Assembly: GCA_032595675.1 (NCBI GenBank)
Contig: JAVQMD010000003.1
Span: 186,001-250,000, forward strand
Reading direction: 5' to 3'
Length of the DNA: 64,000 bases
Source: Candidatus Electrothrix rattekaaiensis
GTDB lineage: Bacteria; Desulfobacterota; Desulfobulbia; Desulfobulbales; Desulfobulbaceae
Shown: in pieces, positions 3,247-21,841 of the stretch
Position numbering within the stretch: the stretch's first letter is position 1
Layout: the number at the start of each line of letters is the position of its first letter
Translations under genes and position numbers: made by a program
Notes under the pieces: model-generated
Databases searched by the model: none
Told to the model about the DNA's origin: nothing
The model's input: the letters and a program-made list of their open reading frames with translations, nothing else

Positions 3247-5498
3247 CGCATACGCGGGGGAATGGTGGGTTTCTGAGTTCTTTTTCCGCCAGCAAGCTGG
3301 ATAACAATATTATTGGTCTTGCGCAGTCGCTTGGTCATGGTTTTAAAAAGCTTTCTCGCAATCTCAGGGTACTGTTCAATGAGCTCGTTCAGTTTGTCGC
3401 CCGGATATCGTTTTATCTTGCAACGCCCGATGGAGACAACCGAAGCATACCTCGCCTCATTCATGATACAAGCCATTTCCCCAAAATACTCTCCGGGCTC
3501 GGTTATTTCAGCAATTTTCTTCCCCTGCTTGAGCACCCCGACTTTTCCTCGGACAAGTTGATAAAAATTCCTATCATCCTCATTTCCTTCCTGGATGATA
3601 ACATCGCCGTCCTCATATTCTTCAACATCTGGATTGACCAAATAGGCAGGCAGCGTGTCTCCATGTGCTACGGTTCGACGTAACACCTCATCAATACTGG
3701 TCACTCCCTGAAGTGTCTTCTTAATAGCCGCCTGCCTGAGAGGAACCATCCCTGCTTGGACGGCAACCTTACGAAGCTGTTCTTCCGGCACCTCAGCCTG
3801 AATAGCCTGACCTACTTCCTCGGTAACCTCTAACAGTTCAAAAAAACCTACCCGACCCTTATATCCAAGACCATTACAGACAGCACAACCCTTGGCCTCG
3901 TAGAGCTGAAAGCCTTCTGCATCAATCTGTTCCTCAGTATAACCGATATTAAGCAAGTATGGCCGCTCATAGGTGGCAGGCTGCTTACATTTTGCACAGA
4001 GCCTTCGGCCCAAACGCTGCGCCAGAACCATGGTCAGAGATCCCGCCAACAGATACGGCGGAATACCGATATCCACCATACGACCGACAGTTGAGGGAGA
4101 ATCGTTGGTATGAAGGGTGCTGAAAACCAAATGGCCGGTCATAGCGGCCTTCATGGCAATCTCCGCTGTACTGATATCACGGATCTCACCAACCATGATG
4201 ATGTCGGGATCCTGACGAAGAAAGGCCTTAAGCGCAGCAGGAAAGGTCATGCCAACTTCAACGTTGACATTGACCTGATTAATGCCTTTAAAATTGAACT
4301 CCACCGGATCCTCTGCTGTCAGGATTTTGATATCCTCACTGTTCAGGGAATTCAATGCCGAGTAAAGAGTAACTGTCTTCCCGGAACCGGTGGGTCCGGT
4401 AACCAGAAGCAATCCTTGAGGACTAGACAGACATTTTTTCAGGATCTCAAATGTTTCCGGCTCGAAACCGAGTTTAGTCAAATCGACATTAAGGGAACCC
4501 TTATCCAGAATACGAAGAACAGTACCTTCGCCATGAAGCAAAGGCAGGGTAGACACACGGAAATCCACCGCCTTATTGCGCCCTAAACGAATACTGATAC
4601 GTCCATCCTGCGGGATTCGACGCTCGGTAATATTCAAATCAGCCAGAATTTTCAAACGGGCGATCAGAGCGTTTTTAATGGTCAGGGGAAGGTTCATGGA
4701 CTTAAACAGGGAACCGTCTTTGCGGTAGCGGACCTGCATAGTCTTTTCAAAGGGTTCGATATGAATATCGCTGACCCCGTCCTGCACCGCCTTGATCAGG
4801 ATACCGTTCACCAGCTTGATGATCGGCGCGTCATTGGCGGAAAATTGCCCGGCCATGCCTTCATCGTCATCGCTGCTGTCTTCAAATTCAAACTCATCAG
4901 CAACATCGGAAACCAAGGCACCCCAGTCCTCGACCTGTTCGACCTGAACATCCTGATCTTCGTCTTCACTGAAAAAAGACTTATACTCCTCCTCGTCAAT
5001 CTTGTAGTAAGTTTTGTAAGCCTCTATAATATCTTTAGCCGTGGAGACGCAAACATCAAGCCCCTTCTTCACCACATTTTGCAGCTCTTCCACCTCAAGG
5101 ACATCGGTGGGCTCGGCCATAGTGACCTGCAAAGTATCACCAGCAATCCTGAGTGGAAAGGCGAGATACTTCTTCGCTGTCTCATAAGGAACCAGTTGAA
5201 GAGCATCCTGACTCGGCGGCTCCTCAGCAATATTCACCATGGTGTAATTATGCTGCCGACTGAGAAAATTAGGGATCGTATCGGATTCGATGGTTCCGTT
5301 CTCAACCAGAATTTTCCCTAACCTTTCACCGTTCTTCTTGTTAATACCCTTGGCGTTATTGAACTCTGCCGCTGTGATATAGCCCGCCTTTTGCAGCAAT
5401 TCACCAATCTTGAGTTTGCCTGCCCCTGATTGATCCTTAACAGTTCGCTTCAGAGAGGCTTTATGTGCTGCTTTAGGGTCCGTTGTTTTTTTTACCAT
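3243..5498 (-). CDS. PilB/GspE-type secretion ATPase with C-terminal cyclic-nucleotide-binding domain
   Basis: A type IV pilus or type II secretion assembly ATPase. An N-terminal MshEN-like region (residues ~20-165) is followed by the catalytic core: Walker A GPTGSGKTVTLY, an Asp box (ILTAEDPVEF), Walker B-like DPDIIMVGEIRD, a His box (STLHTNDSPST), and a tetracysteine zinc site (CAKC ... CAVC). The last ~120 residues form a cyclic-nucleotide-binding domain, with GDVIIQEGNEDDRNFYQLVRG then PGEYFGEMACI. That is an unusual fusion for this family and suggests that c-di-nucleotide or cNMP sensing controls assembly. The start is placed at the ATG at 5498; an upstream GTG at 5525 is possible. No pilin or platform gene lies nearby. 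Confidence 0.9.
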   Translation of the reverse strand: MVKKTTDPKAAHKASLKRTVKDQSGAGKLKIGELLQKAGYITAAEFNNAKGINKKNGERLGKILVENGTIESDTIPNFLSRQHNYTMVNIAEEPPSQDALQLVPYETAKKYLAFPLRIAGDTLQVTMAEPTDVLEVEELQNVVKKGLDVCVSTAKDIIEAYKTYYKIDEEEYKSFFSEDEDQDVQVEQVEDWGALVSDVADEFEFEDSSDDDEGMAGQFSANDAPIIKLVNGILIKAVQDGVSDIHIEPFEKTMQVRYRKDGSLFKSMNLPLTIKNALIARLKILADLNITERRIPQDGRISIRLGRNKAVDFRVSTLPLLHGEGTVLRILDKGSLNVDLTKLGFEPETFEILKKCLSSPQGLLLVTGPTGSGKTVTLYSALNSLNSEDIKILTAEDPVEFNFKGINQVNVNVEVGMTFPAALKAFLRQDPDIIMVGEIRDISTAEIAMKAAMTGHLVFSTLHTNDSPSTVGRMVDIGIPPYLLAGSLTMVLAQRLGRRLCAKCKQPATYERPYLLNIGYTEEQIDAEGFQLYEAKGCAVCNGLGYKGRVGFFELLEVTEEVGQAIQAEVPEEQLRKVAVQAGMVPLRQAAIKKTLQGVTSIDEVLRRTVAHGDTLPAYLVNPDVEEYEDGDVIIQEGNEDDRNFYQLVRGKVGVLKQGKKIAEITEPGEYFGEMACIMNEARYASVVSIGRCKIKRYPGDKLNELIEQYPEIARKLFKTMTKRLRKTNNIVIQLAGGKRTQKPTIPPRMR

Positions 5499-5972
5499 AA
5501 TATCTCGGGAAAAAATTCCGGTCACAGGAATAAATTACAAAGCTACTTCTTCAGGGATACATCATCATTAATTATTATTATGATGATTAGTGAATAAACT
5601 TCATGAAGGACACCTTGCCATCCCCTGTGACTTTTTTTCATAGGAGGACATATCTTATAATTTCTTTACTGAGGAATAGTCCGTATTTTTTTGTTATGCC
5701 GTGTCAATCGCTCACTTTTTAAGTACTTTTTCAAACTACTATTTTTTACTTTACTACAATTTACTACAAAAAAAAACGAGCCAAAAGTAATTTTCCCTCT
5801 TGCTCTGTTTTTTTCATAAAATTATGATGGATACAAAATGAGTACAGGAGTAGGCTCAGCCCTATGTCTTCAACATACTGAGCTCACCTCCTGCCGCTGC
5901 CACTGTCTGTTACCAGCAGCCACCGGCGAACATCAACAATATAACAACGGTCTCTTTATTCTGCAAGACTGC
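5499..5972. other. Non-coding AT-rich region between two leftward genes
   Basis: The stretch is AT-rich with homopolymers and short repeats such as TTTACTACAA and CATCATTAATTATTATTATGATGATT (an imperfect palindrome near 5560-5590). It should hold the promoter of the PilB-like gene and the terminator of the metallophosphoesterase gene. No supported gene was found. Confidence 0.5.
5776..5814 (-). terminator. Probable terminator of the metallophosphoesterase gene
   Basis: On the minus strand, an imperfect stem (ACAGAGCAAGAG against CTTTTGGCTCGT) is followed by nine T residues. It resembles the better hairpins at 7194-7229 and 9370-9405 in sequence. Confidence 0.5.
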
Positions 5973-14516: not shown

Positions 14517-15084
14517 TATACTTTTACCTTTAAGAAAGATCGCTCGCAGGTCAAGGCATCATCATTTAAGCAATCAAAGAATAAAATCTGTCTGATCCTT
14601 TTCCCGATCAATCAGGGCCGCCCCGACCGCATTACCCACTTCATAATGATCGGGAAATCAAACCATTGTCCATTCCTCGGCAGACAGCTTCCACCGCTCA
14701 ATCCGGCAAAGAACTTGCTTGCTCTCTTTTTTGGAGAAACGTACAGACAACTATCGTATGTTCACGGAAAGTTCAAGGGGAAAGAATACGGGGGCGGCTT
14801 TTTCGAGGCGGCGTGAAGTAAGAAAAACGGTGGAGTCGAACCACGATCCCGCAAGACTGCGGACAGCCCGCAGTAAGTGTCTTTCGCTTCTTCTTCTTTC
14901 TGTCAAAAGTGGTTTTCTGTTTACTTTTCATTCAAAATCGTTAACATCTGACACGGATACAATAAACATTCAGCTTTCCATGTTTGCCCCTTTCATATCC
15001 TGATAGGAGTAAATAATACTAAATAATGCTAATGCGGGCTGCGATCAATACAGGGAATAGAATGTACCTAGCGAAAGAAGGAAT
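14517..15084. other. Region of gene debris, no intact gene
   Basis: 568 bp between the two radical SAM genes. It contains an HyuA-type gene fragment (14574-14657). It also has a short open stretch around 14695-14814 that could be decayed coding sequence but matches nothing I recognise. At about 14816-14895 there is a tRNA-like T-arm sequence. The promoter of the next gene must lie at the right end. Confidence 0.5.
14574..14657 (-). pseudogene. C-terminal fragment of a HyuA-type hydantoinase/oxoprolinase gene
   Basis: On the minus strand 27 codons plus a stop read FPDHYEVGNAVGAALIDREK, then DQTDFIL. They align with the C-terminus of the intact HyuA-type protein encoded at 20132-21841 (FPEHYEVGNAVGAALISREN). 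A TGA stop lies in frame immediately upstream and the rest of the gene is absent, so this is a relic of a paralogue or of an old duplication. Confidence 0.8.
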
Positions 15085-15972: not shown

Positions 15973-16089
15973 AAAATAAAAAAGTACGAGAGTATAACAT
16001 CAAGAAAAAAAAATCATGAACACAGATCAGTTCGATGGTCTGAATTTGGTTTGATAGAAGGCGAATTGCTCACATGCCTCGCGTAACGA

Positions 16090-16326
16090 TTACAACGTCA
16101 CGTTGCAGGCTTAATATGCCTCATATGAAGTTTACAATGCCACGTTGTAAGCTTCACATGGCCTATTGTAAGCTTACAATGACTTGATGTACGCTTCATA
16201 TGGCCCGTTGTAAACGTACAATGCCTCAATGTGAGCTTCTCATGACACGTTGCACGCTTTACATGATCCATTGTAAACAAACAATGCCGTATTGTAAGCT
16301 TTACGCGCCGCATATGAAGCCTGCAA
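16090..16326. repeat. Degenerate array of about eleven 21-bp units with palindromic cores
   Basis: Successive units of 21 bp (one or two of 20 or 22) each contain a variant of the palindrome CATTGTAAGCTTACAATG, for example TTGTAAGCTTCACATG and TTGTAAACGTACAATG. The period equals two turns of B-DNA. A minus-strand translation has a 7-residue period (units such as LTIRHCK, LTIGHVK, LTTWHCK). A similar period occurs at 30491-30868 and 51006-51110. Confidence 0.75.
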
Positions 16327-16333
16327 TGGAGTG

Positions 16334-16361
16334 CTTAATTGGGGTCTGTCCCTAATTTGCT
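16334..16361. repeat. REP-like palindrome
   Basis: AATTGGGG-TCTGT-CCCTAATT is a short hairpin of a kind I associate with REP/RAYT-related sequences ('GGGGTCTGTCCC'). Only one copy was noticed in the window and no transposase is adjacent. Confidence 0.35.
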
Positions 16362-16439
16362 ATTTATTACAACATTCCGAGGGCAAGCACCCGTTTCAGC
16401 ACAACAGGCCTTGTTACAGATCAGACTTACAGATCAAAC

Positions 16440-17000
16440 TTACGGTTCAGACCTTTTGAGATATTTCCTGTAAATATTAACAGACTCCCTGTCCAGCCAC
16501 CTGCTGAATACTTCAAAAAAGGTAACTTCTTTTCTGATCAGATAAAAAACACAGAGCAACAGCAGAGAGAGCAAGGTTACATCATTCTGCCAGGCATCCA
16601 GCGCCCACTGGCCTGACCAAACAAGGGCAAAATCTGCATCAAAGGGGTAGAAATAATAGAGAGGCCATTGATATCCATCTGGCCCCTTTGCCCCGATCAG
16701 ATCACAAAATATATGGAAATGAACCACTGCAAAGGAGACGAGCCAGACAGTTATCTTTTGGGATTTTGAGAAAAAACTCGCCAAGAGCGCAAAGAGAAAA
16801 GCAGAGACAATACTGTGCCCCAGCTTATGGTGATATTCTATAAAATACCCGGTTGTGCCGGTAAACTCATCAATAATCAGCCCGAGCCCGTCAAGATCAG
16901 GAGCAACGCCTGTTAAGGCAACCACGGCTCGCTCTCTGCGACCTTGGAGAAAGTTGACAGCACTGGTCCAGCTGACCAGCAAATGCGTTCCAGGATACAT
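16440..17000 (-). CDS. YdjM-like membrane-bound metal-dependent hydrolase
   Basis: The 186-residue protein opens with MYPGTHLLVSW, then VALTGVAPDLDGLG and YFIEYHHKLGHSIVSAF, and later AVVHFHIFCDLIGAKG. These His/Asp clusters (HLL, APDLD, HHKLGHS, HIFCDL) between hydrophobic helices define the LexA-binding, inner-membrane-associated putative hydrolase family (YdjM, PF04307). About four membrane segments are visible. The physiological substrate is not known for the family. It is a single gene within the AT-rich island. Confidence 0.82.
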   Translation of the reverse strand: MYPGTHLLVSWTSAVNFLQGRRERAVVALTGVAPDLDGLGLIIDEFTGTTGYFIEYHHKLGHSIVSAFLFALLASFFSKSQKITVWLVSFAVVHFHIFCDLIGAKGPDGYQWPLYYFYPFDADFALVWSGQWALDAWQNDVTLLSLLLLCVFYLIRKEVTFFEVFSRWLDRESVNIYRKYLKRSEP

Positions 17001-17100: not shown

Positions 17101-18390
17101 TCATCTAAACATAAATTTATTAAATTCATTTAAGTATCTTGGGTCTGGCCATAAATCTTCTGATTGAGGTAAACGGCTTCGATGGATAGGGCCAACTATT
17201 GCTATATATTCTTTAAGATCAAAGCCGTACTCTTTAGATTCTTTTTTTATATTATCCGGTATACTGATAATATATTTTCTCTCTGAGTTATCATAATCAA
17301 GCTTGATTACCCCAGAGTCGAATGCCCAATGACATTGTTTATTAATACATATTCCATTTGCAACAGAATTTATATCATACATTGCCCAAGGTAGTATATG
17401 AGCTGCATCTACTCCAGCTGATCCTGTCGATTTCATTTGGGTGTGGATCTTTTGCTTCGACGGTCACGAAAAGTCAGTTAGTTAGTTACGGGCACCATGG
17501 TATTTTTTCTAATAAAATCAATGGTAGTTGTTTTAAAAGAGCCACACCCATTTCATTTTAGGGAGTTTTTGACCAGTAAACATGCATGTTTCCCTGTACG
17601 ATGCTCGTATATTTTGTCGGAATTTTGAAGCGTTACCTCCACGAACAGCTACTTTCCTCCACTGTTTTACAGTCTCAATTCTTGCTAATTGTGGAGATTG
17701 ATCATCTTCAAGGCCAAAAGATTTTCCTAGTATTATTCGAGATGTTTCTTTATGACTATTATTTTGTTCAACCTCTGTTAACGCCTCAATTTTTTCGAGA
17801 GGATCGTAAATTATCTCAAGATGATTTGCTATAGCTCGGGCAGATTTTTCAACTATTTTGAAATTAACGTCATTCGCATAAAAACTTTTTTTATGATTGC
17901 GAAGCAAAGTGGCTAACTCAGAGTCTATTTTTTCGACTGCCTTCCATATCTCTATTATCCTTGACAATCTTTCGATAAAATCGACATGTTGTTCTAGTCC
18001 GCTGTAGCTAGCAAGGAGTATGTCAGTAGGTCGGATAATAACTTTATCCGGCATAACTGAGCTGATATCTATTTTAATAACTGTAATGGAATAAGATTCA
18101 AAGGATATCAGTGTATCTCCGCCTGTCGTCTTGAATTCTCTCTTTGGTTTTGGTAGCAAGAGCAGGCTTGCTATTAAACGATAAAGGTGCGTAGTTGTTT
18201 CTTGTTCATCAAGCTTGATTCGAGGCTTTCCTTGCCTTTTATCAGCCCTGGCGCGACCAGGGATTATTAAATTAGGTGTAATTTCATAGTACAGCTCTTT
18301 GTTGAATATATCCGACGCGGTGTATTCTCCCTGGCTTCCAGCTAATTCGTAAACACCGCGTCCTCCACCAGTTCTGAGTGCTATTCTCAT
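17101..18390 (-). pseudogene. HNH restriction endonuclease split by a MITE
   Basis: The first exon-like part (18390 to about 17550) encodes ~280 residues. It ends in FRQNIRASYRETCMFTGQKLP, the first half of an HNH nuclease fold with its first Cys. The rest (17436-17101) continues with STGSAGVDAAHILPWAMYD and NGICINKQCHWAFDSGVI, the catalytic His and later His/Asp of the same domain. Between them lies a 111-bp element that brings a TAA stop. Removing the element plus one target copy (120 bp) rejoins the two parts in frame as a ~391-residue protein. The gene starts 1 nt after the DNA methyltransferase stop, so the pair was a type II restriction-modification operon. Confidence 0.88.
17439..17549. 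mobile_element. MITE with 16-bp terminal inverted repeats and 9-bp target duplication
   Basis: The element begins GGGTGTGGATCTTTTG and ends with the reverse complement of GGGTGTGGCTCTTTTA (14 of 16 matching). It is flanked by perfect copies of ATTTCATTT at 17430-17438 and 17550-17558. It could also be read as 112 bp with 8-bp duplications. It has no coding capacity. No full-length partner element is visible in this window. Confidence 0.85.
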
Positions 18391-18391
18391 T

Positions 18392-19663
18392 TTATTGTTG
18401 GCATTGAAGGTGATATAATGCTTCGGATAAAGGATGAAATAATTTTCGGCCTTGCTTGTTAACTCTTCTTAGAATTCCTTTTGCTGCATTTGGAGATAAA
18501 AAGTATTTTAGGTCTGGCCGTTCTTTATCTAGGGCGTTTACTAAAAGAGAGGGAATTGGATTTTGAGGCATTTGTGAAACTGGTCCCATTATGCATTCGT
18601 TTCTTTCTAGTACCCCGGCACTAGCCCATTTAATTTTTGGAGCATCTGTATGGCTTGTAACTTTGGGTAGCTTTATTTTGCTTGAGCCTGAGCTCCCAAG
18701 TTTTGGCGTGCTTACAGCAAATCTTTCTATGCCAAGTGATGTTGTGTTCACGGTCGGGGAAATTTCATAGAATTTTTTTTCTACTCTTTTACCTATCCAT
18801 TCAACAACGGGCACAGATACAGCGTTTCCTATGGCTTTATATCGAAGGCTATCAATTTTTTCTTTTGATATTTTGAGATTTTGGTCAGGCTTTGTCCATC
18901 CTACTGGAAGCCCTTGTATTCTTTCACATTCAGTGGGCGTTAGTCGCCTAACTTCATTTTGATAAGTCACATAGGATCTGCTCCAGTCTGTTCCGGTATG
19001 TCGACCTGACGTTGCTGCTAAGCAAAAAGCTACTTCTGGAACGGTTGCCCCTGTAAATTGACATTTGGTTGGTCGAAGAAATCCTTCACGTGGTTTTTCA
19101 GGCTTCTTGCAATTTCCTTCTTCAAATAGTACATGATATGCGTTATCCGGTGATCCTTTCCAAGCGCAAATAAATACCCGTGGCCTTGACTGCGGGGCAC
19201 CGAAATAACGAGTGTTCAATATCCTCCAAGCTACTCCGTAGCCAAGGCTAGTGAGAGATTGAAGGATGACGGCAAAGTCTTTTCCGTCATGAGAATTGAG
19301 CAATCCCGAAACGTTTTCCATGATTATAATTTGCGGGCGTTTGGCTTTGATTAAATCGACAAAAGGATAAAATAGTCCTGTGTTTTTTCCTTTTAATCCA
19401 TCTCTTCCAAGCCATCCACGAGCAACTGAGACATCTTGACATGGAAACCCTCCGCACCATATATCTGTATTCGGTATAAGAGATGCTTCTAACTGATTTA
19501 TATCGAAATGCTTTTTAGTTTTTGGCCAGTGATTTTTCAAGATTTCAATGCAAAACGGATCTTTTTCACATTGAAAGACGGTTTTAATTCCAGCTTGTTC
19601 AAATCCTAACTCAAATCCGCCTATTCCTGAAAAAAAAGAGGCGCATTGCATGGTGTTTTTCAT
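18392..19663 (-). CDS. DNA (cytosine-5)-methyltransferase with extended C-terminus
   Basis: Motif I is FFSGIGGFELGFEQAG, motif IV FPCQDVSVA with catalytic Cys75, motif VI ENVSGLL, motif VIII QSRPRVF and motif X YKAIGNAVSVPVVEW. The target-recognition part is short, between motifs VIII and X. After motif X there are ~120 extra residues of unknown role. All key residues are present, so the enzyme is probably active even though its partner nuclease downstream is split. The recognition sequence cannot be read from the protein. Its coding sequence is AT-rich, like the rest of the island, consistent with horizontal acquisition. Confidence 0.93.
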   Translation of the reverse strand: MKNTMQCASFFSGIGGFELGFEQAGIKTVFQCEKDPFCIEILKNHWPKTKKHFDINQLEASLIPNTDIWCGGFPCQDVSVARGWLGRDGLKGKNTGLFYPFVDLIKAKRPQIIIMENVSGLLNSHDGKDFAVILQSLTSLGYGVAWRILNTRYFGAPQSRPRVFICAWKGSPDNAYHVLFEEGNCKKPEKPREGFLRPTKCQFTGATVPEVAFCLAATSGRHTGTDWSRSYVTYQNEVRRLTPTECERIQGLPVGWTKPDQNLKISKEKIDSLRYKAIGNAVSVPVVEWIGKRVEKKFYEISPTVNTTSLGIERFAVSTPKLGSSGSSKIKLPKVTSHTDAPKIKWASAGVLERNECIMGPVSQMPQNPIPSLLVNALDKERPDLKYFLSPNAAKGILRRVNKQGRKLFHPLSEALYHLQCQQ

Positions 19664-19827: not shown

Positions 19828-20091
19828 TTATGCCGCCGTATCCAATTCGGTTTTACCTTTGGAGTTCTCGATATCCCAAATGATCGTATCAGAACTGAAG
19901 TCCTGCTCATTCGGCCACATAATGCCGCGATGAGCGGGGCGGACAAGTTTGAAATATGCTTCGTCCCTGAGATCCTTGAATGCGGTTCCTTTCAGATAGG
20001 GCTTCACGTCAAATATCCCGGATACTCCGCTGCTGGTGCGAATTTCTATTTTGTAGTCTTTAAGCGGAACAGCTTTGATAACAGTATCCAT
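19828..20091 (-). CDS. DUF2442-family small protein
   Basis: An 87-residue protein. The sequence DYKIEIRTSSGVSGIFDV, then PYLKGTAFKDLRD and RGIMWPNEQDFSSDTI, is the typical DUF2442 layout: a short beta-rich domain ending in W-P-(N/D)-x-x-D-x-x-x-(D/E). Many members sit beside DUF4160 genes in toxin-antitoxin-like pairs, but no partner is present here. It lies 40 bp downstream of the HyuA-type gene in the same direction, so it may be cotranscribed. Function unknown. Confidence 0.8.
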   Translation of the reverse strand: MDTVIKAVPLKDYKIEIRTSSGVSGIFDVKPYLKGTAFKDLRDEAYFKLVRPAHRGIMWPNEQDFSSDTIIWDIENSKGKTELDTAA

Positions 20092-20131: not shown

Positions 20132-21841
20132 TTAAAACAGCCGCGCACCATCATTTTCCCGGCTGATCAAAGCCGCCCCAACCGCATTACCCACCTCATA
20201 ATGCTCAGGAAAACGGACAGTGGTGTGCAAACGCTCAGCCACGGCAGGCAGGAAACAGCGTGCCGCCGCACCAATCCCGATAATCGGCACCTTAACTGCA
20301 ACCCGAAGAGAAAACAACTCATTATCCATGCTGCTCAGGAAGGGCGCAGCCTCGACATCCTGCCAGACCTTACGCCCGAGATAATCAAGAATGATGCCCT
20401 CAATGGTCTTTTCCGCTTCCGCCACCACCTGAAGACAGAGGGCCTCAATACTCATATCCAAAGAGGCGGCCAAGGCTCGTGCCCCGTGCTCGGCCTGTTC
20501 CTTGCTGCCGATATCCAGTTTACCCAGGACATGCAGGGCATCGGTCGGTGTGAAACCGGCCATCCTGACCTGCTGGAGATAGGCCAAACGCTCCAACCGT
20601 TTTTCAAGAAGGATCCCGGACAGGCCGGTCTGTTGCGTCAGCGTTTCCAAGTTAGCCGGACCATGTTCCCGGAGACAGAAGAGGATTTCATCCTCACTGA
20701 CAACCTCATCGCTCAATCCCTCAACCGGCAAAACCACGGCATTACGCAGCCCGCAACCCAGCCATTGCTCAGGATCTGGAACATCCTCAGTCATACAGAG
20801 CGGCTGAACCCTGGTTGCTTCCAGGCGAATCTTCAGACGCTGTATACAACCGCCCCCCTCCAAGGAACAGTCCTGATCCGAAGAGCAGATCACATGGGAA
20901 TCCCCGCCGCCTGCTGCGGTATACATATCAATGGCCTCCACATGGGTGCGCCACTGCCCGATCCGGCAGCCTTCATCGCTCAGGACCGGATGCCCGTCCC
21001 GGATCATGCAGACATCCGTGGTTGTGCCGCCCACATCAACAATCAGGGCCGTGGGCTCTCCAGCTGTACAGCCGAAACGGGCCGTGGCAGCAGGCCCGCT
21101 GGCCATCGTGATCGCGGCCCGCCGGACAGCTGTGTCCAGCCCTGCCCCTTTACCGTTCCCGCAGATAATGGTCACCGGACAATTCAAGCCCGCATTAAGC
21201 ATGGAAATCTTGATAGAGGAAAGAAAGCTGATCATCAGGGGCATGAGTTTAGCGTGCAGACAGGCGGTGGCCGCGCGAGCCCGCATACCCGGATTATCAC
21301 TGACCTGATGGGAGCAAAAGACCGGCTTGGGATCAATCATGGTGATGGCCTCTTCCGCCACCAGCTCATGGGTCGGGTTTTTGATAGACATGCCACCGCA
21401 GACCGCATAGCTGTCCACCTCGTTCTTGAGCCCATGCACCGAATCAACTAGGCCCTCAATATCTAGGGGTTCATCCTCTTCCCCGGTGATCTTATGACCG
21501 CCTTTCAAAAAAATATTCGCGGTGATAGGGAGCTTGAAATGACGAACATAACCGAAGACCAGCAGCCCCACTCGCGCACCCCGGTCTTCAACCACGGCAT
21601 TAGTGGCCAAGGTGGTGGACACGGAAAGCCCGATAATGTCTTCCGGGGCAATATCCGAAGCAAGCAGTTTTTTCAGCACCCGACCAACACCGATCCCTAG
21701 GTTATGATGGGTGGTCGGCTCCTTGGCCGAATGCACCACTTCAAGGGTGGCATCATCAAGGAGAACCCCGTCGGTGCAGGTGCCTCCAGTATCTATACCG
21801 ATGCGGTAACATCGGACGTATTCTCTTACCAGCTTGCCCAT
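20132..21841 (-). CDS. Hydantoinase/oxoprolinase family protein (HyuA-like)
   Basis: A 569-residue ASKHA-fold ATPase. RIGIDTGGTCTDGVLLD at the N-terminus is the phosphate-1 loop, LSVSTTLATNAVVEDRG is the HyuA signature, and ALIVDVGGTTTDVCMI is the phosphate-2 loop. It matches the HyuA half of ATP-dependent hydantoinases and 5-oxoprolinases; the HyuB partner is absent here. Single-subunit relatives also occur near methanogenesis or one-carbon genes, so the substrate is open. A decayed copy of its C-terminus lies at 14574-14657. Confidence 0.88.
   Translation of the reverse strand: MGKLVREYVRCYRIGIDTGGTCTDGVLLDDATLEVVHSAKEPTTHHNLGIGVGRVLKKLLASDIAPEDIIGLSVSTTLATNAVVEDRGARVGLLVFGYVRHFKLPITANIFLKGGHKITGEEDEPLDIEGLVDSVHGLKNEVDSYAVCGGMSIKNPTHELVAEEAITMIDPKPVFCSHQVSDNPGMRARAATACLHAKLMPLMISFLSSIKISMLNAGLNCPVTIICGNGKGAGLDTAVRRAAITMASGPAATARFGCTAGEPTALIVDVGGTTTDVCMIRDGHPVLSDEGCRIGQWRTHVEAIDMYTAAGGGDSHVICSSDQDCSLEGGGCIQRLKIRLEATRVQPLCMTEDVPDPEQWLGCGLRNAVVLPVEGLSDEVVSEDEILFCLREHGPANLETLTQQTGLSGILLEKRLERLAYLQQVRMAGFTPTDALHVLGKLDIGSKEQAEHGARALAASLDMSIEALCLQVVAEAEKTIEGIILDYLGRKVWQDVEAAPFLSSMDNELFSLRVAVKVPIIGIGAAARCFLPAVAERLHTTVRFPEHYEVGNAVGAALISRENDGARLF

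What the first reader, a model, noticed from the sequence alone, without database searches (positions are those of the whole stretch)
17101..18390. Restriction endonuclease inactivated by a 111-bp MITE, leaving an orphan-like m5C methyltransferase
The HNH nuclease reading frame is cut exactly at a 9-bp target duplication (ATTTCATTT on both sides). The inserted element has 16-bp inverted ends and brings an in-frame stop. Taking out the element plus one target copy (120 bp) restores one continuous reading frame through the HNH domain. The adjacent methyltransferase keeps all catalytic motifs. This is a direct snapshot of restriction loss with retained methylation.
Basis: seen in the sequence. 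Interest (0 to 1): 0.8.

Follow-up and report, generated by a model that had tools for sequence, protein, structure and literature searches.

The report
Restriction enzyme gene split by MITE
A tiny mobile DNA element jumped into a bacterium's DNA-cutting defence gene and broke it in two while the partner gene that marks the bacterium's own DNA looks intact, and that partner carries a domain which many related genes in bacteria and phages appear to hide in a second, overlapping reading frame.

Summary
A 111-bp element (17439-17549) lies between perfect 9-bp target duplications. The genome has 10 copies (108-111 of 111 positions identical), 9 with 9-bp duplications, and six ISKra4-family insertion sequences with nearly the same ends and 9-bp duplications. 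Decisive test: in 14 uninterrupted nuclease homologues the two window pieces align as one protein with exactly the expected spacing (14 of 14), each beside an m5C methyltransferase gene. The window methyltransferase is full length (69% identical end to end to its closest relative, L154). So restriction is very probably lost and modification probably retained; neither was measured. Correction: the inverted ends are 15 bp with one mismatch, not 16. New: the pair was not found in 7 congeners; the nuclease's N-terminal domain gave no credible Pfam or PDB match; the methyltransferase nests among ones with LlaJI/AAA/GmrSD-type partners (hybrid system). Its C-terminal domain matches a +1 overlapping frame inside 74 of 158 m5C methyltransferase genes, against 2 of 1480 synonymous shuffles: a probable overprinted gene, in-frame here.

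The parts
17439..17549 (.). 111-bp MITE; 15-bp terminal inverted repeats with one mismatch
   Evidence: 10 copies in the genome, 1 in congener G001
17430..17438 (.). 9-bp target duplication, copy 1 (ATTTCATTT)
17550..17558 (.). 9-bp target duplication, copy 2 (ATTTCATTT)
17533..18390 (-). N-terminal piece of the nuclease gene (285 aa, the last 5 coded at least partly by the element); matches positions 1-283 of the 390-position family profile
17101..17436 (-). C-terminal piece of the nuclease gene with the HNH_2 catalytic domain (111 aa); matches positions 281-388 of the profile
18392..19663 (-). m5C DNA methyltransferase, 423 aa, complete; its stop lies 1 bp before the nuclease start
18395..18748 (-). 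C-terminal domain of the methyltransferase (residues 306-423), homologous to a +1 overlapping frame inside other m5C methyltransferase genes
19828..20091 (-). DUF2442 gene, upstream neighbour in the same island
14595..14657 (.). 63-bp direct repeat, left edge of the island (degenerate copy of the hydantoinase gene 3' end)
20150..20212 (.). 63-bp direct repeat, right edge of the island (3' end of the hydantoinase gene, 83% identical to the left copy)

Best explanation
A horizontally acquired Type II-like restriction-modification pair (m5C methyltransferase followed by an HNH nuclease, 1 bp apart on the minus strand) lost its nuclease when a 111-bp MITE, probably moved in trans by an ISKra4-family transposase, inserted between the first cysteine of the HNH finger and the H-N-H residues taken to be catalytic (recalled from the HNH family) and duplicated 9 bp. 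Translation of the N piece stops in the element's end; the HNH piece is left without its N-terminal domain. The methyltransferase upstream is untouched and can stay active without harm. Shown: the insertion, the duplications, the copy family, the insertion sequences with matching ends, uninterrupted homologues, the complete methyltransferase frame. Inferred: mobilisation in trans, loss of cleavage, continued methylation.
For: 10 near-identical copies, 9 of 10 with perfect 9-bp duplications, and 6 of 6 insertion sequences with 9-bp duplications. Transposase passes the NCBIfam ISKra4 model at 319.9 bits, cut-off 205; 5 of the 6 copies keep a 518-aa frame without stops. End-motif scan with one mismatch: 34 places = 20 MITE ends, 12 insertion-sequence ends, 2 singles; control pattern 1. 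A profile of 14 intact homologues matches the N piece at positions 1-283 (E 8e-75) and the C piece at 281-388 (E 8e-47). In 14 of 14 homologues exactly 12 residues lie between the residues matching N-piece G273 and C-piece G8, as in the window pieces. Closest homologue L154: methyltransferase 69% over residues 1-423, nuclease 61% (N) and 65% (C) in one 402-aa frame. No second copy of either nuclease piece found in the genome.
Against: No uninterrupted allele of the same species or genus was found: nothing like the pair's DNA was listed in the 7 congeners held, some of them incomplete (69-97% complete). No expression, methylation or cleavage data. The sixth base of the element's end (T in the 10 own copies and in G001's) differs from the insertion sequences' (C), so the genome's own insertion sequence is not its exact parent. 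One of 10 copies (C2:757671) lacks a duplication.
Confidence: 0.88

Rival explanations
1. The segment is a natural part of this nuclease (a family-specific insert or two separate genes), not an insertion.
For: Both pieces are open frames and the C piece begins with an ATG.
Against: 0 of 14 homologues contain it and spacing is exact in 14 of 14; the same 111 bp sits at nine other places, eight of them with their own 9-bp duplication.
Confidence: 0.01
2. The two pieces are both made and reassemble into a working nuclease; the duplication-provided ATG restarts translation of the HNH piece.
For: ATG in frame at the start of the C piece; the H-N-H positions lie in the C piece; both frames free of further stops.
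Against: No promoter-like site was listed inside the element or just before the C piece; the region has fewer such sites (4) than shuffles (mean 8.2); the split falls inside the HNH finger; no ribosome-binding site is evident by eye.
Confidence: 0.04
3. Reversible off-switch: precise excision of the MITE restores the nuclease in part of the population.
For: Perfect 9-bp repeats flank the element; element plus one repeat is 120 bp, in frame.
Against: No empty allele seen (no population data were available); no data on ISKra4 excision here; C2:757671 has lost or never had its repeats.
Confidence: 0.05
4. The HNH protein was a modification-dependent (Type IV-like) enzyme rather than the cognate Type II partner of the methyltransferase.
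For: Closest folds of the HNH part are the modification-dependent TagI (Z 13.1), VcaM4I (Z 10.8) and EcoKMcrA (Z 7.5); Foldseek ranks TagI first at E 0.004.
Against: The match covers only the HNH part. In 17 of 17 loci with the N-terminal domain the nuclease gene directly follows or faces an m5C methyltransferase gene; a cutter of that methylated motif would attack its own host.
Confidence: 0.08

Closest known systems
Solitary (orphan) m5C methyltransferases derived from decayed R-M systems (Oliveira et al. 2014, PMC4176335; passages seen, part of the abstract among them)
   Same: Complete methyltransferase beside a broken nuclease gene.
   Different: Those authors conclude that solitary genes rarely arise by degradation in place; here the breaking event itself is visible.
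Insertional inactivation by prokaryotic MITEs (review PMC10969869, passages seen: mcy of Anabaena, hns, avrA, hopX1, pyrE)
   Same: Short non-autonomous element with inverted ends and duplications splits a gene.
   Different: Target is a restriction endonuclease; 'restriction' has 0 occurrences in that review's main text.
ISKra4-family insertion sequences (NCBIfam NF033572)
   Same: Shared terminal motif (one base different) and 9-bp duplications; the right 21 bp of the MITE match the end of congener G001's copy at 95%.
   Different: The element encodes no transposase; credible similarity to the 13 insertion-sequence stretches compared is confined to the terminal 15-22 bp.
SRA/EVE/NEco-HNH restriction endonucleases (TagI 6ghs, VcaM4I 6yex, EcoKMcrA 6ghc)
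   Same: Fold of the C-terminal HNH domain.
   Different: The N-terminal domain gave no credible match, and the gene is paired with a methyltransferase.
LlaJI-type R-M systems (Pfam PF09563)
   Same: The window methyltransferase nests among methyltransferases of such loci and shares their in-frame C-terminal domain.
   Different: Its partner is an HNH nuclease, not an AAA+/LlaJI-type pair.
PHROG families 16143 and 1008, labelled 'DNA methyltransferase'
   Same: They match proteins read from the +1 overlapping frames of methyltransferase genes (L165, L150; L149).
   Different: The label names the enclosing enzyme; the window's own domain is below the 0.001 limit in PHROGs.

Membership tests
MITE | Short, non-coding for a transposase, with terminal inverted repeats | tested here: met
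   111 bp, 15-bp ends with one mismatch; apart from the end of the N piece, the only ORF of 60 aa or more that touches it is a 67-aa frame running in from flanking DNA
MITE | Target-site duplication | tested here: met
   9 of 10 own-genome copies with 9 bp; G001 copy 10 bp
MITE | Several near-identical dispersed copies | tested here: met
   10 copies, 108-111 of 111 identical
ISKra4-mobilised element | Ends and duplication length shared with an ISKra4 insertion sequence | tested here: met
   one base different in 15; 9-bp duplications in 6 of 6 insertion sequences
ISKra4-mobilised element | Transposition in trans by that transposase | not testable with these tools
   needs a transposition assay
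Type II R-M system | Modification methyltransferase with catalytic motifs | tested here: met
   PF00145 219.5 bits, TIGR00675 216.3 bits; motifs conserved against Rctr41k (motif names recalled)
Type II R-M system | Conserved adjacent nuclease partner | tested here: met
   17 of 80 fetched methyltransferase loci carry the N domain, 14 with the same HNH and 3 with PF01844 HNH, all directly adjacent
Type II R-M system | Cleavage blocked by cognate methylation | not testable with these tools
   no biochemistry
Modification-dependent HNH endonuclease (Type IV-like) | Known modification-sensor domain (SRA, EVE, NEco) | tested here: inconclusive
   no Pfam family shared by more than 1 of 18 members; no Foldseek match at E <= 0.001, best Z 4.2
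Solitary methyltransferase | No working cognate nuclease nearby | tested here: inconclusive
   the only copy of the nuclease found is split; other nuclease genes within ten genes were not systematically sought
Solitary methyltransferase | Methyltransferase active | not testable with these tools
   needs methylation calling
Overlapping (overprinted) gene in m5C methyltransferase genes | Second frame conserved as protein beyond what the first frame imposes | tested here: met
   +1 match in 74 of 158 genes, +2 in 0; 2 of 1480 synonymous shuffles match; +1 open run beyond all 20 shuffles in 61 of 74 (+2: 8 of 74)
Overlapping (overprinted) gene in m5C methyltransferase genes | Translated product | not testable with these tools
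   68 of 74 have a start codon with a Shine-Dalgarno-like stretch before the match (no null computed); needs ribosome profiling or mass spectrometry

The most novel reading that the evidence does not exclude
The C-terminal domain of the window's methyltransferase is a protein that many other m5C methyltransferase genes of bacteria and phages encode as an overprinted gene, in the +1 frame of the catalytic region. In the window's lineage (with LlaJI-type relatives) it has become an in-frame tail and the +1 frame is no longer unusually open. The module would be a working partner of the methyltransferase, and the window locus then records three steps: overlap resolved into a fusion, methyltransferase re-paired with an HNH nuclease of an undescribed family, and that nuclease cut off by a MITE.
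Probability: 0.5. Interest if true: 0.75.

Novelty: new variant of a known kind. Interest (0 to 1): 0.52.

Why it matters
How free-standing DNA methyltransferases arise is debated: Oliveira et al. (PMC4176335, passages) infer that they rarely come from decay of R-M systems in place. This locus is a clean, apparently recent case of that route, with a defined lesion, a complete methyltransferase and an intact cousin (L154). The by-product may matter more: a second protein apparently overprinted in a common enzyme gene of bacteria and phages, with a natural unfused/fused comparison that makes its function testable.

Tried and rejected
Looked for an intact allele in close relatives: none; in the relatives search (57 genomes, own included) the best other methyltransferase hits are 33-38% identical over about 160 residues, and no DNA match to the pair other than the MITE was listed in 7 congeners. 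Searched the N piece alone in 395 genomes of the phylum, plasmids, phages, IMG/VR and the GTDB contigs: nothing but itself; single-sequence patterns were probably too strict. The C piece alone found 9 HNH proteins in 8 other genomes of the phylum; 3 of the 9 were checked and are HNH_2, one 88-aa match segment gave no Pfam family. They resemble the window in the HNH part only: the N piece does not match their profile significantly (E 0.26) and the spacing there differs by about two residues, so they are not used as evidence for exact contiguity. Plasmids gave none for the C piece. The methyltransferase alone in IMG/VR gave nothing. The route that worked was a two-sequence methyltransferase alignment. 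IMG/VR with it gave 80 loci (a capped list), none with this nuclease.

IS256-type (Transposase_mut) origin of the MITE: rejected, no such transposase found in the genome. A distant ISKra4 paralogue at C1:1304219 (35% identity) has no matching ends within 3 mismatches in the 4-kb stretch fetched. Of 8 congener stretches fetched, 7 show ends (GGGTGCGG, GGGTGAGG or AGGTGCGG) and 1 (L139) none; none has the MITE's GGGTGTGG. Rfam and tRNA searches gave nothing. Paper searches: MITE with restriction endonuclease gene, 0 papers with all four terms; ISKra4 with MITE, 4 papers, one opened (passages), nothing on a linked MITE; ISKra4 with target duplication, 2 papers, none opened; overlapping gene with cytosine methyltransferase, 26 papers with three of four terms, 12 listed, none by title or abstract start on this overlap, none opened. 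Sequence searches of solved structures found no relative of the nuclease (one search lists six hits at E 0.11 or worse, not credible).

Mended on re-check: my draft said that the other HNH-paired methyltransferases lack the C-terminal extension. That was wrong: searches show that they carry it in the +1 frame inside the gene. Results against the overlap reading: 72 of 158 genes show no match, plasmid records none, phage records only 17 of 50,697, and 13 of 74 genes do not exceed the shuffles in open length. In one search I labelled C-piece residue 8 as V; it is G, the count of 12 stands. In one search minus-oriented copies were not turned round and one boundary was off; one search replaces it for copies and duplications. 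The other joined-site ORFs (L013 115 aa, L012 97, L017 90, L018 296 with unchanged length, none of 80 aa or more at the rest) are not relied on.

Full report
What is there. On the minus strand the window holds a 423-aa m5C methyltransferase (18392-19663), then 1 bp later a nuclease gene cut in two: an N piece (17533-18390, 285 aa) and a C piece (17101-17436, 111 aa) with an HNH_2 domain (38.2 bits, cut-off 21). Between them lies a 111-bp element, 17439-17549, flanked by ATTTCATTT on both sides. The N frame stops at a TAA inside the element; the C frame starts at an ATG that lies in the duplication. With flanks joined in a script a single 389-aa frame covers the site.

The element is mobile. 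The genome (4.48 Mb in 5 contigs, unnamed) has 10 copies, 108-111 of 111 positions identical to the window's; 9 of 10 have a perfect 9-bp duplication, each a different sequence, and one (C2:757671) has none. Of 57 genomes searched, own included, only the own genome and congener G001 have a match; G001's copy has a 10-bp duplication. The window copy has one private substitution, at position 55.

A likely driver. A scan for the end motif with one mismatch allowed found 34 places: 20 are ends of the 10 MITEs, 12 are ends of six insertion sequences of 1693 bp (one of 1683), 2 are single; the reversed control pattern gave 1. The insertion sequence differs from the MITE by one base in the 15-bp end, has 9-bp duplications in 6 of 6 copies, and encodes a transposase that passes the ISKra4 model (319.9 bits, cut-off 205). 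Five copies keep a 518-aa frame without stops; the 1683-bp copy is degraded. Similarity of the MITE to 13 insertion-sequence stretches is confined to the last 15-22 bp; the best is an end of G001's copy, 95% over 21 bp. So the parent is probably a relative of that one; mobilisation in trans is an inference.

Is it a gene broken by the element? This was the central test. A two-sequence methyltransferase alignment (window and phage Rctr41k, 45% identical) was used to scan the genome-contig collection (one genome for each of 84,980 species); the best 80 of 348 confirmed loci were kept. Of these 80, 17 carry a frame related to the N piece and 14 of the 17 also match the C piece in the same uninterrupted frame. 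The best, L154 (a gammaproteobacterial MAG), has a methyltransferase 69% identical over residues 1-423 and a 402-aa nuclease frame with N-piece residues 1-280 on 13-292 (61%) and C-piece residues 1-110 on 291-400 (65%). A profile of the 14 intact homologues matches the N piece at positions 1-283 of 390 and the C piece at 281-388, with E 8e-75 and 8e-47. In 14 of 14 homologues exactly 12 residues lie between the positions of N-piece G273 and C-piece G8, the number given by the window pieces themselves (7 + 5). None of the 14 holds the segment.

Is it an R-M pair? In 17 of 17 loci the nuclease gene directly adjoins the methyltransferase gene, in the same direction in 7 and facing it in 10. The loci were fetched by their methyltransferase, so presence within 5 kb is partly by design; immediate adjacency is not. 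Three of the 17 (L167, L180, L181) carry the same N-terminal domain on a different HNH, PF01844, which suggests that the N domain is the portable recognition part (inference). The HNH part of a predicted model of the L154 nuclease (pLDDT 83) is closest to TagI (Z 13.1, 112 residues, 2.5 A) and VcaM4I (Z 10.8, 111 residues, 2.5 A), both modification-dependent enzymes; Foldseek gave no match at E 0.001 or better, TagI first at 0.004. The N domain (residues 1-205, pLDDT 94.4, pTM 0.89, 18 sequences) gave no Foldseek match at E 0.001 or better and a best Z of 4.2, and no Pfam family shared by more than 1 of 18 members. A missing match does not prove a new fold.

How it most likely works. The element separates the N-terminal domain and the first cysteine of the HNH finger from the H, N and H taken to be catalytic, so cleavage is very probably lost (inference). 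The methyltransferase lies upstream and is complete; without the nuclease its loss carries no penalty, and its presence no harm, so methylation can persist as a free-standing function until it decays or is put to use. No second copy of either nuclease piece was found in the genome.

Origin of the pair. No DNA match to the pair other than the MITE was listed in the 7 congeners held; by protein their best methyltransferase matches are 36-38% identical, in G002 only. A 5.55-kb island is bounded by 63-bp direct repeats (14595-14657, 20150-20212; 83% identical) that are the 3' end of a hydantoinase gene. In congener G003 the genes left of the island lie about 198 bp from the hydantoinase match; in G004 a relative of the YdjM gene (16361-17000) lies about 40 bp from it. 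So the pair was probably gained at this spot, then broken. No integrase was recognised among the eight proteins scanned.

A hybrid. A tree of 37 methyltransferase rows (catalytic part) places window and L154 together (100/95), with L155 (97/92), inside a group of 12 (100/99) of which the other 10 (L155-L164) lie next to other partners. Of these ten, Pfam was run on neighbours of four: L157 RE_LlaJI and AAA_5, L164 AAA_5, L155 DUF2357 with PDDEXK_7, L158 GmrSD. Nine of ten show a shared RLGK[DT]S start in the neighbouring protein by eye; the tenth (L159) was cut from the output. This points to an exchange of partners before the MITE came.

An overlapping gene, found while checking this report. 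The last 118 residues of the window methyltransferase match, in the 28 closest loci, two different things. In L154-L164 (11) they match an in-frame C-terminal tail. In L165-L181 (17) they match the +1 frame inside the methyltransferase gene, for example L165 5281-5625, 37% over 117 residues, E 1e-17, while the methyltransferase itself reads through 5001-5903 in another frame. Over 162 loci the same holds: 11 in-frame tails, 74 matches in +1 (71 inside the aligned catalytic part, 3 reaching past it), none in +2. Among 158 methyltransferase genes cut from these loci and the window: 12 in-frame (the window itself is one), 74 in +1, 0 in +2, 72 without a match. Permuting synonymous codons within each gene keeps the methyltransferase but destroys the match: 2 of 1480 permuted genes match, and in 0 of 74 genes does any permutation reach the real score. 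The longest +1 open run exceeds all 20 permutations in 61 of 74 genes (median 165 aa against 84), the +2 run in 8 of 74. In none of the 12 in-frame cases is the +1 run beyond its permutations. All 74 have a start codon before the match, 68 with a Shine-Dalgarno-like stretch, but no null was computed for that. In the three phage records opened (H39, H48, H49) and in Rctr41k only the enclosing methyltransferase is annotated over the match. PHROGs holds two families matching such frames under the label DNA methyltransferase. The best reading is an overprinted partner protein that became a C-terminal domain in the window's lineage, or the reverse; direction and function are not known. Whether it has been described elsewhere is not settled: one full-text search was made (listing only).

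Against known work. MITE inactivation of genes is known (PMC10969869, passages) and so are solitary methyltransferases; Oliveira et al. (PMC4176335, passages) infer that the latter rarely come from decay in place. The MITE event itself is a well-documented new member of a known kind; the pair it broke is a new variant (undescribed nuclease family as far as Pfam and NCBIfam show, hybrid partnership, freed overlap domain).

Noticed in passing
window 18395-18748 (-); L165 5140-5625; L150 4170-4649; L149 5637-6629: A +1-frame open reading frame of about 165 aa overlaps the catalytic region of 74 of 158 m5C methyltransferase genes and is homologous to the window methyltransferase's in-frame C-terminal domain; synonymous shuffles do not reproduce it.
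   Followed up: partly
window 18392-19663 and L154-L181: Partner exchange: the window and L154 methyltransferases nest within methyltransferases whose neighbours, where checked, are LlaJI/AAA/PDDEXK/GmrSD-type genes, yet have an HNH nuclease beside them.
   Followed up: partly
window 17773-18390 (-); A3 members: The nuclease N-terminal domain (GRGEYE, GKPRIRL motifs) is a conserved module across several phyla, found on two kinds of HNH, with a confident model and no credible match in Pfam or the PDB.
   Followed up: partly
window 14595-14657 and 20150-20212: 63-bp direct repeats made of the hydantoinase gene's 3' end bound a 5.55-kb island; in congeners G003 and G004 other genes lie close to that gene, which looks like an integration hot spot without a recognised integrase.
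   Followed up: partly
window 16083-16330: Array of imperfect palindromic units (periods 21, 42, 63), with similar stretches scattered in this genome and in congeners.
   Followed up: no
L051 (G000:C1:1805885-1807567): One ISKra4 copy is 1683 bp with several stops in its transposase, a relic beside five copies with open frames.
   Followed up: no
G000:C2:757671-757781: One MITE copy lacks a target duplication, as after recombination or an imprecise event.
   Followed up: no
G004:C1:2540929 and 3499283, G006:C1:2068358, G007:C1:1231996 and others: In congeners several ISKra4 transposase genes are split in two frames at about residue 250 or 440; frameshift or decay was not examined.
   Followed up: no
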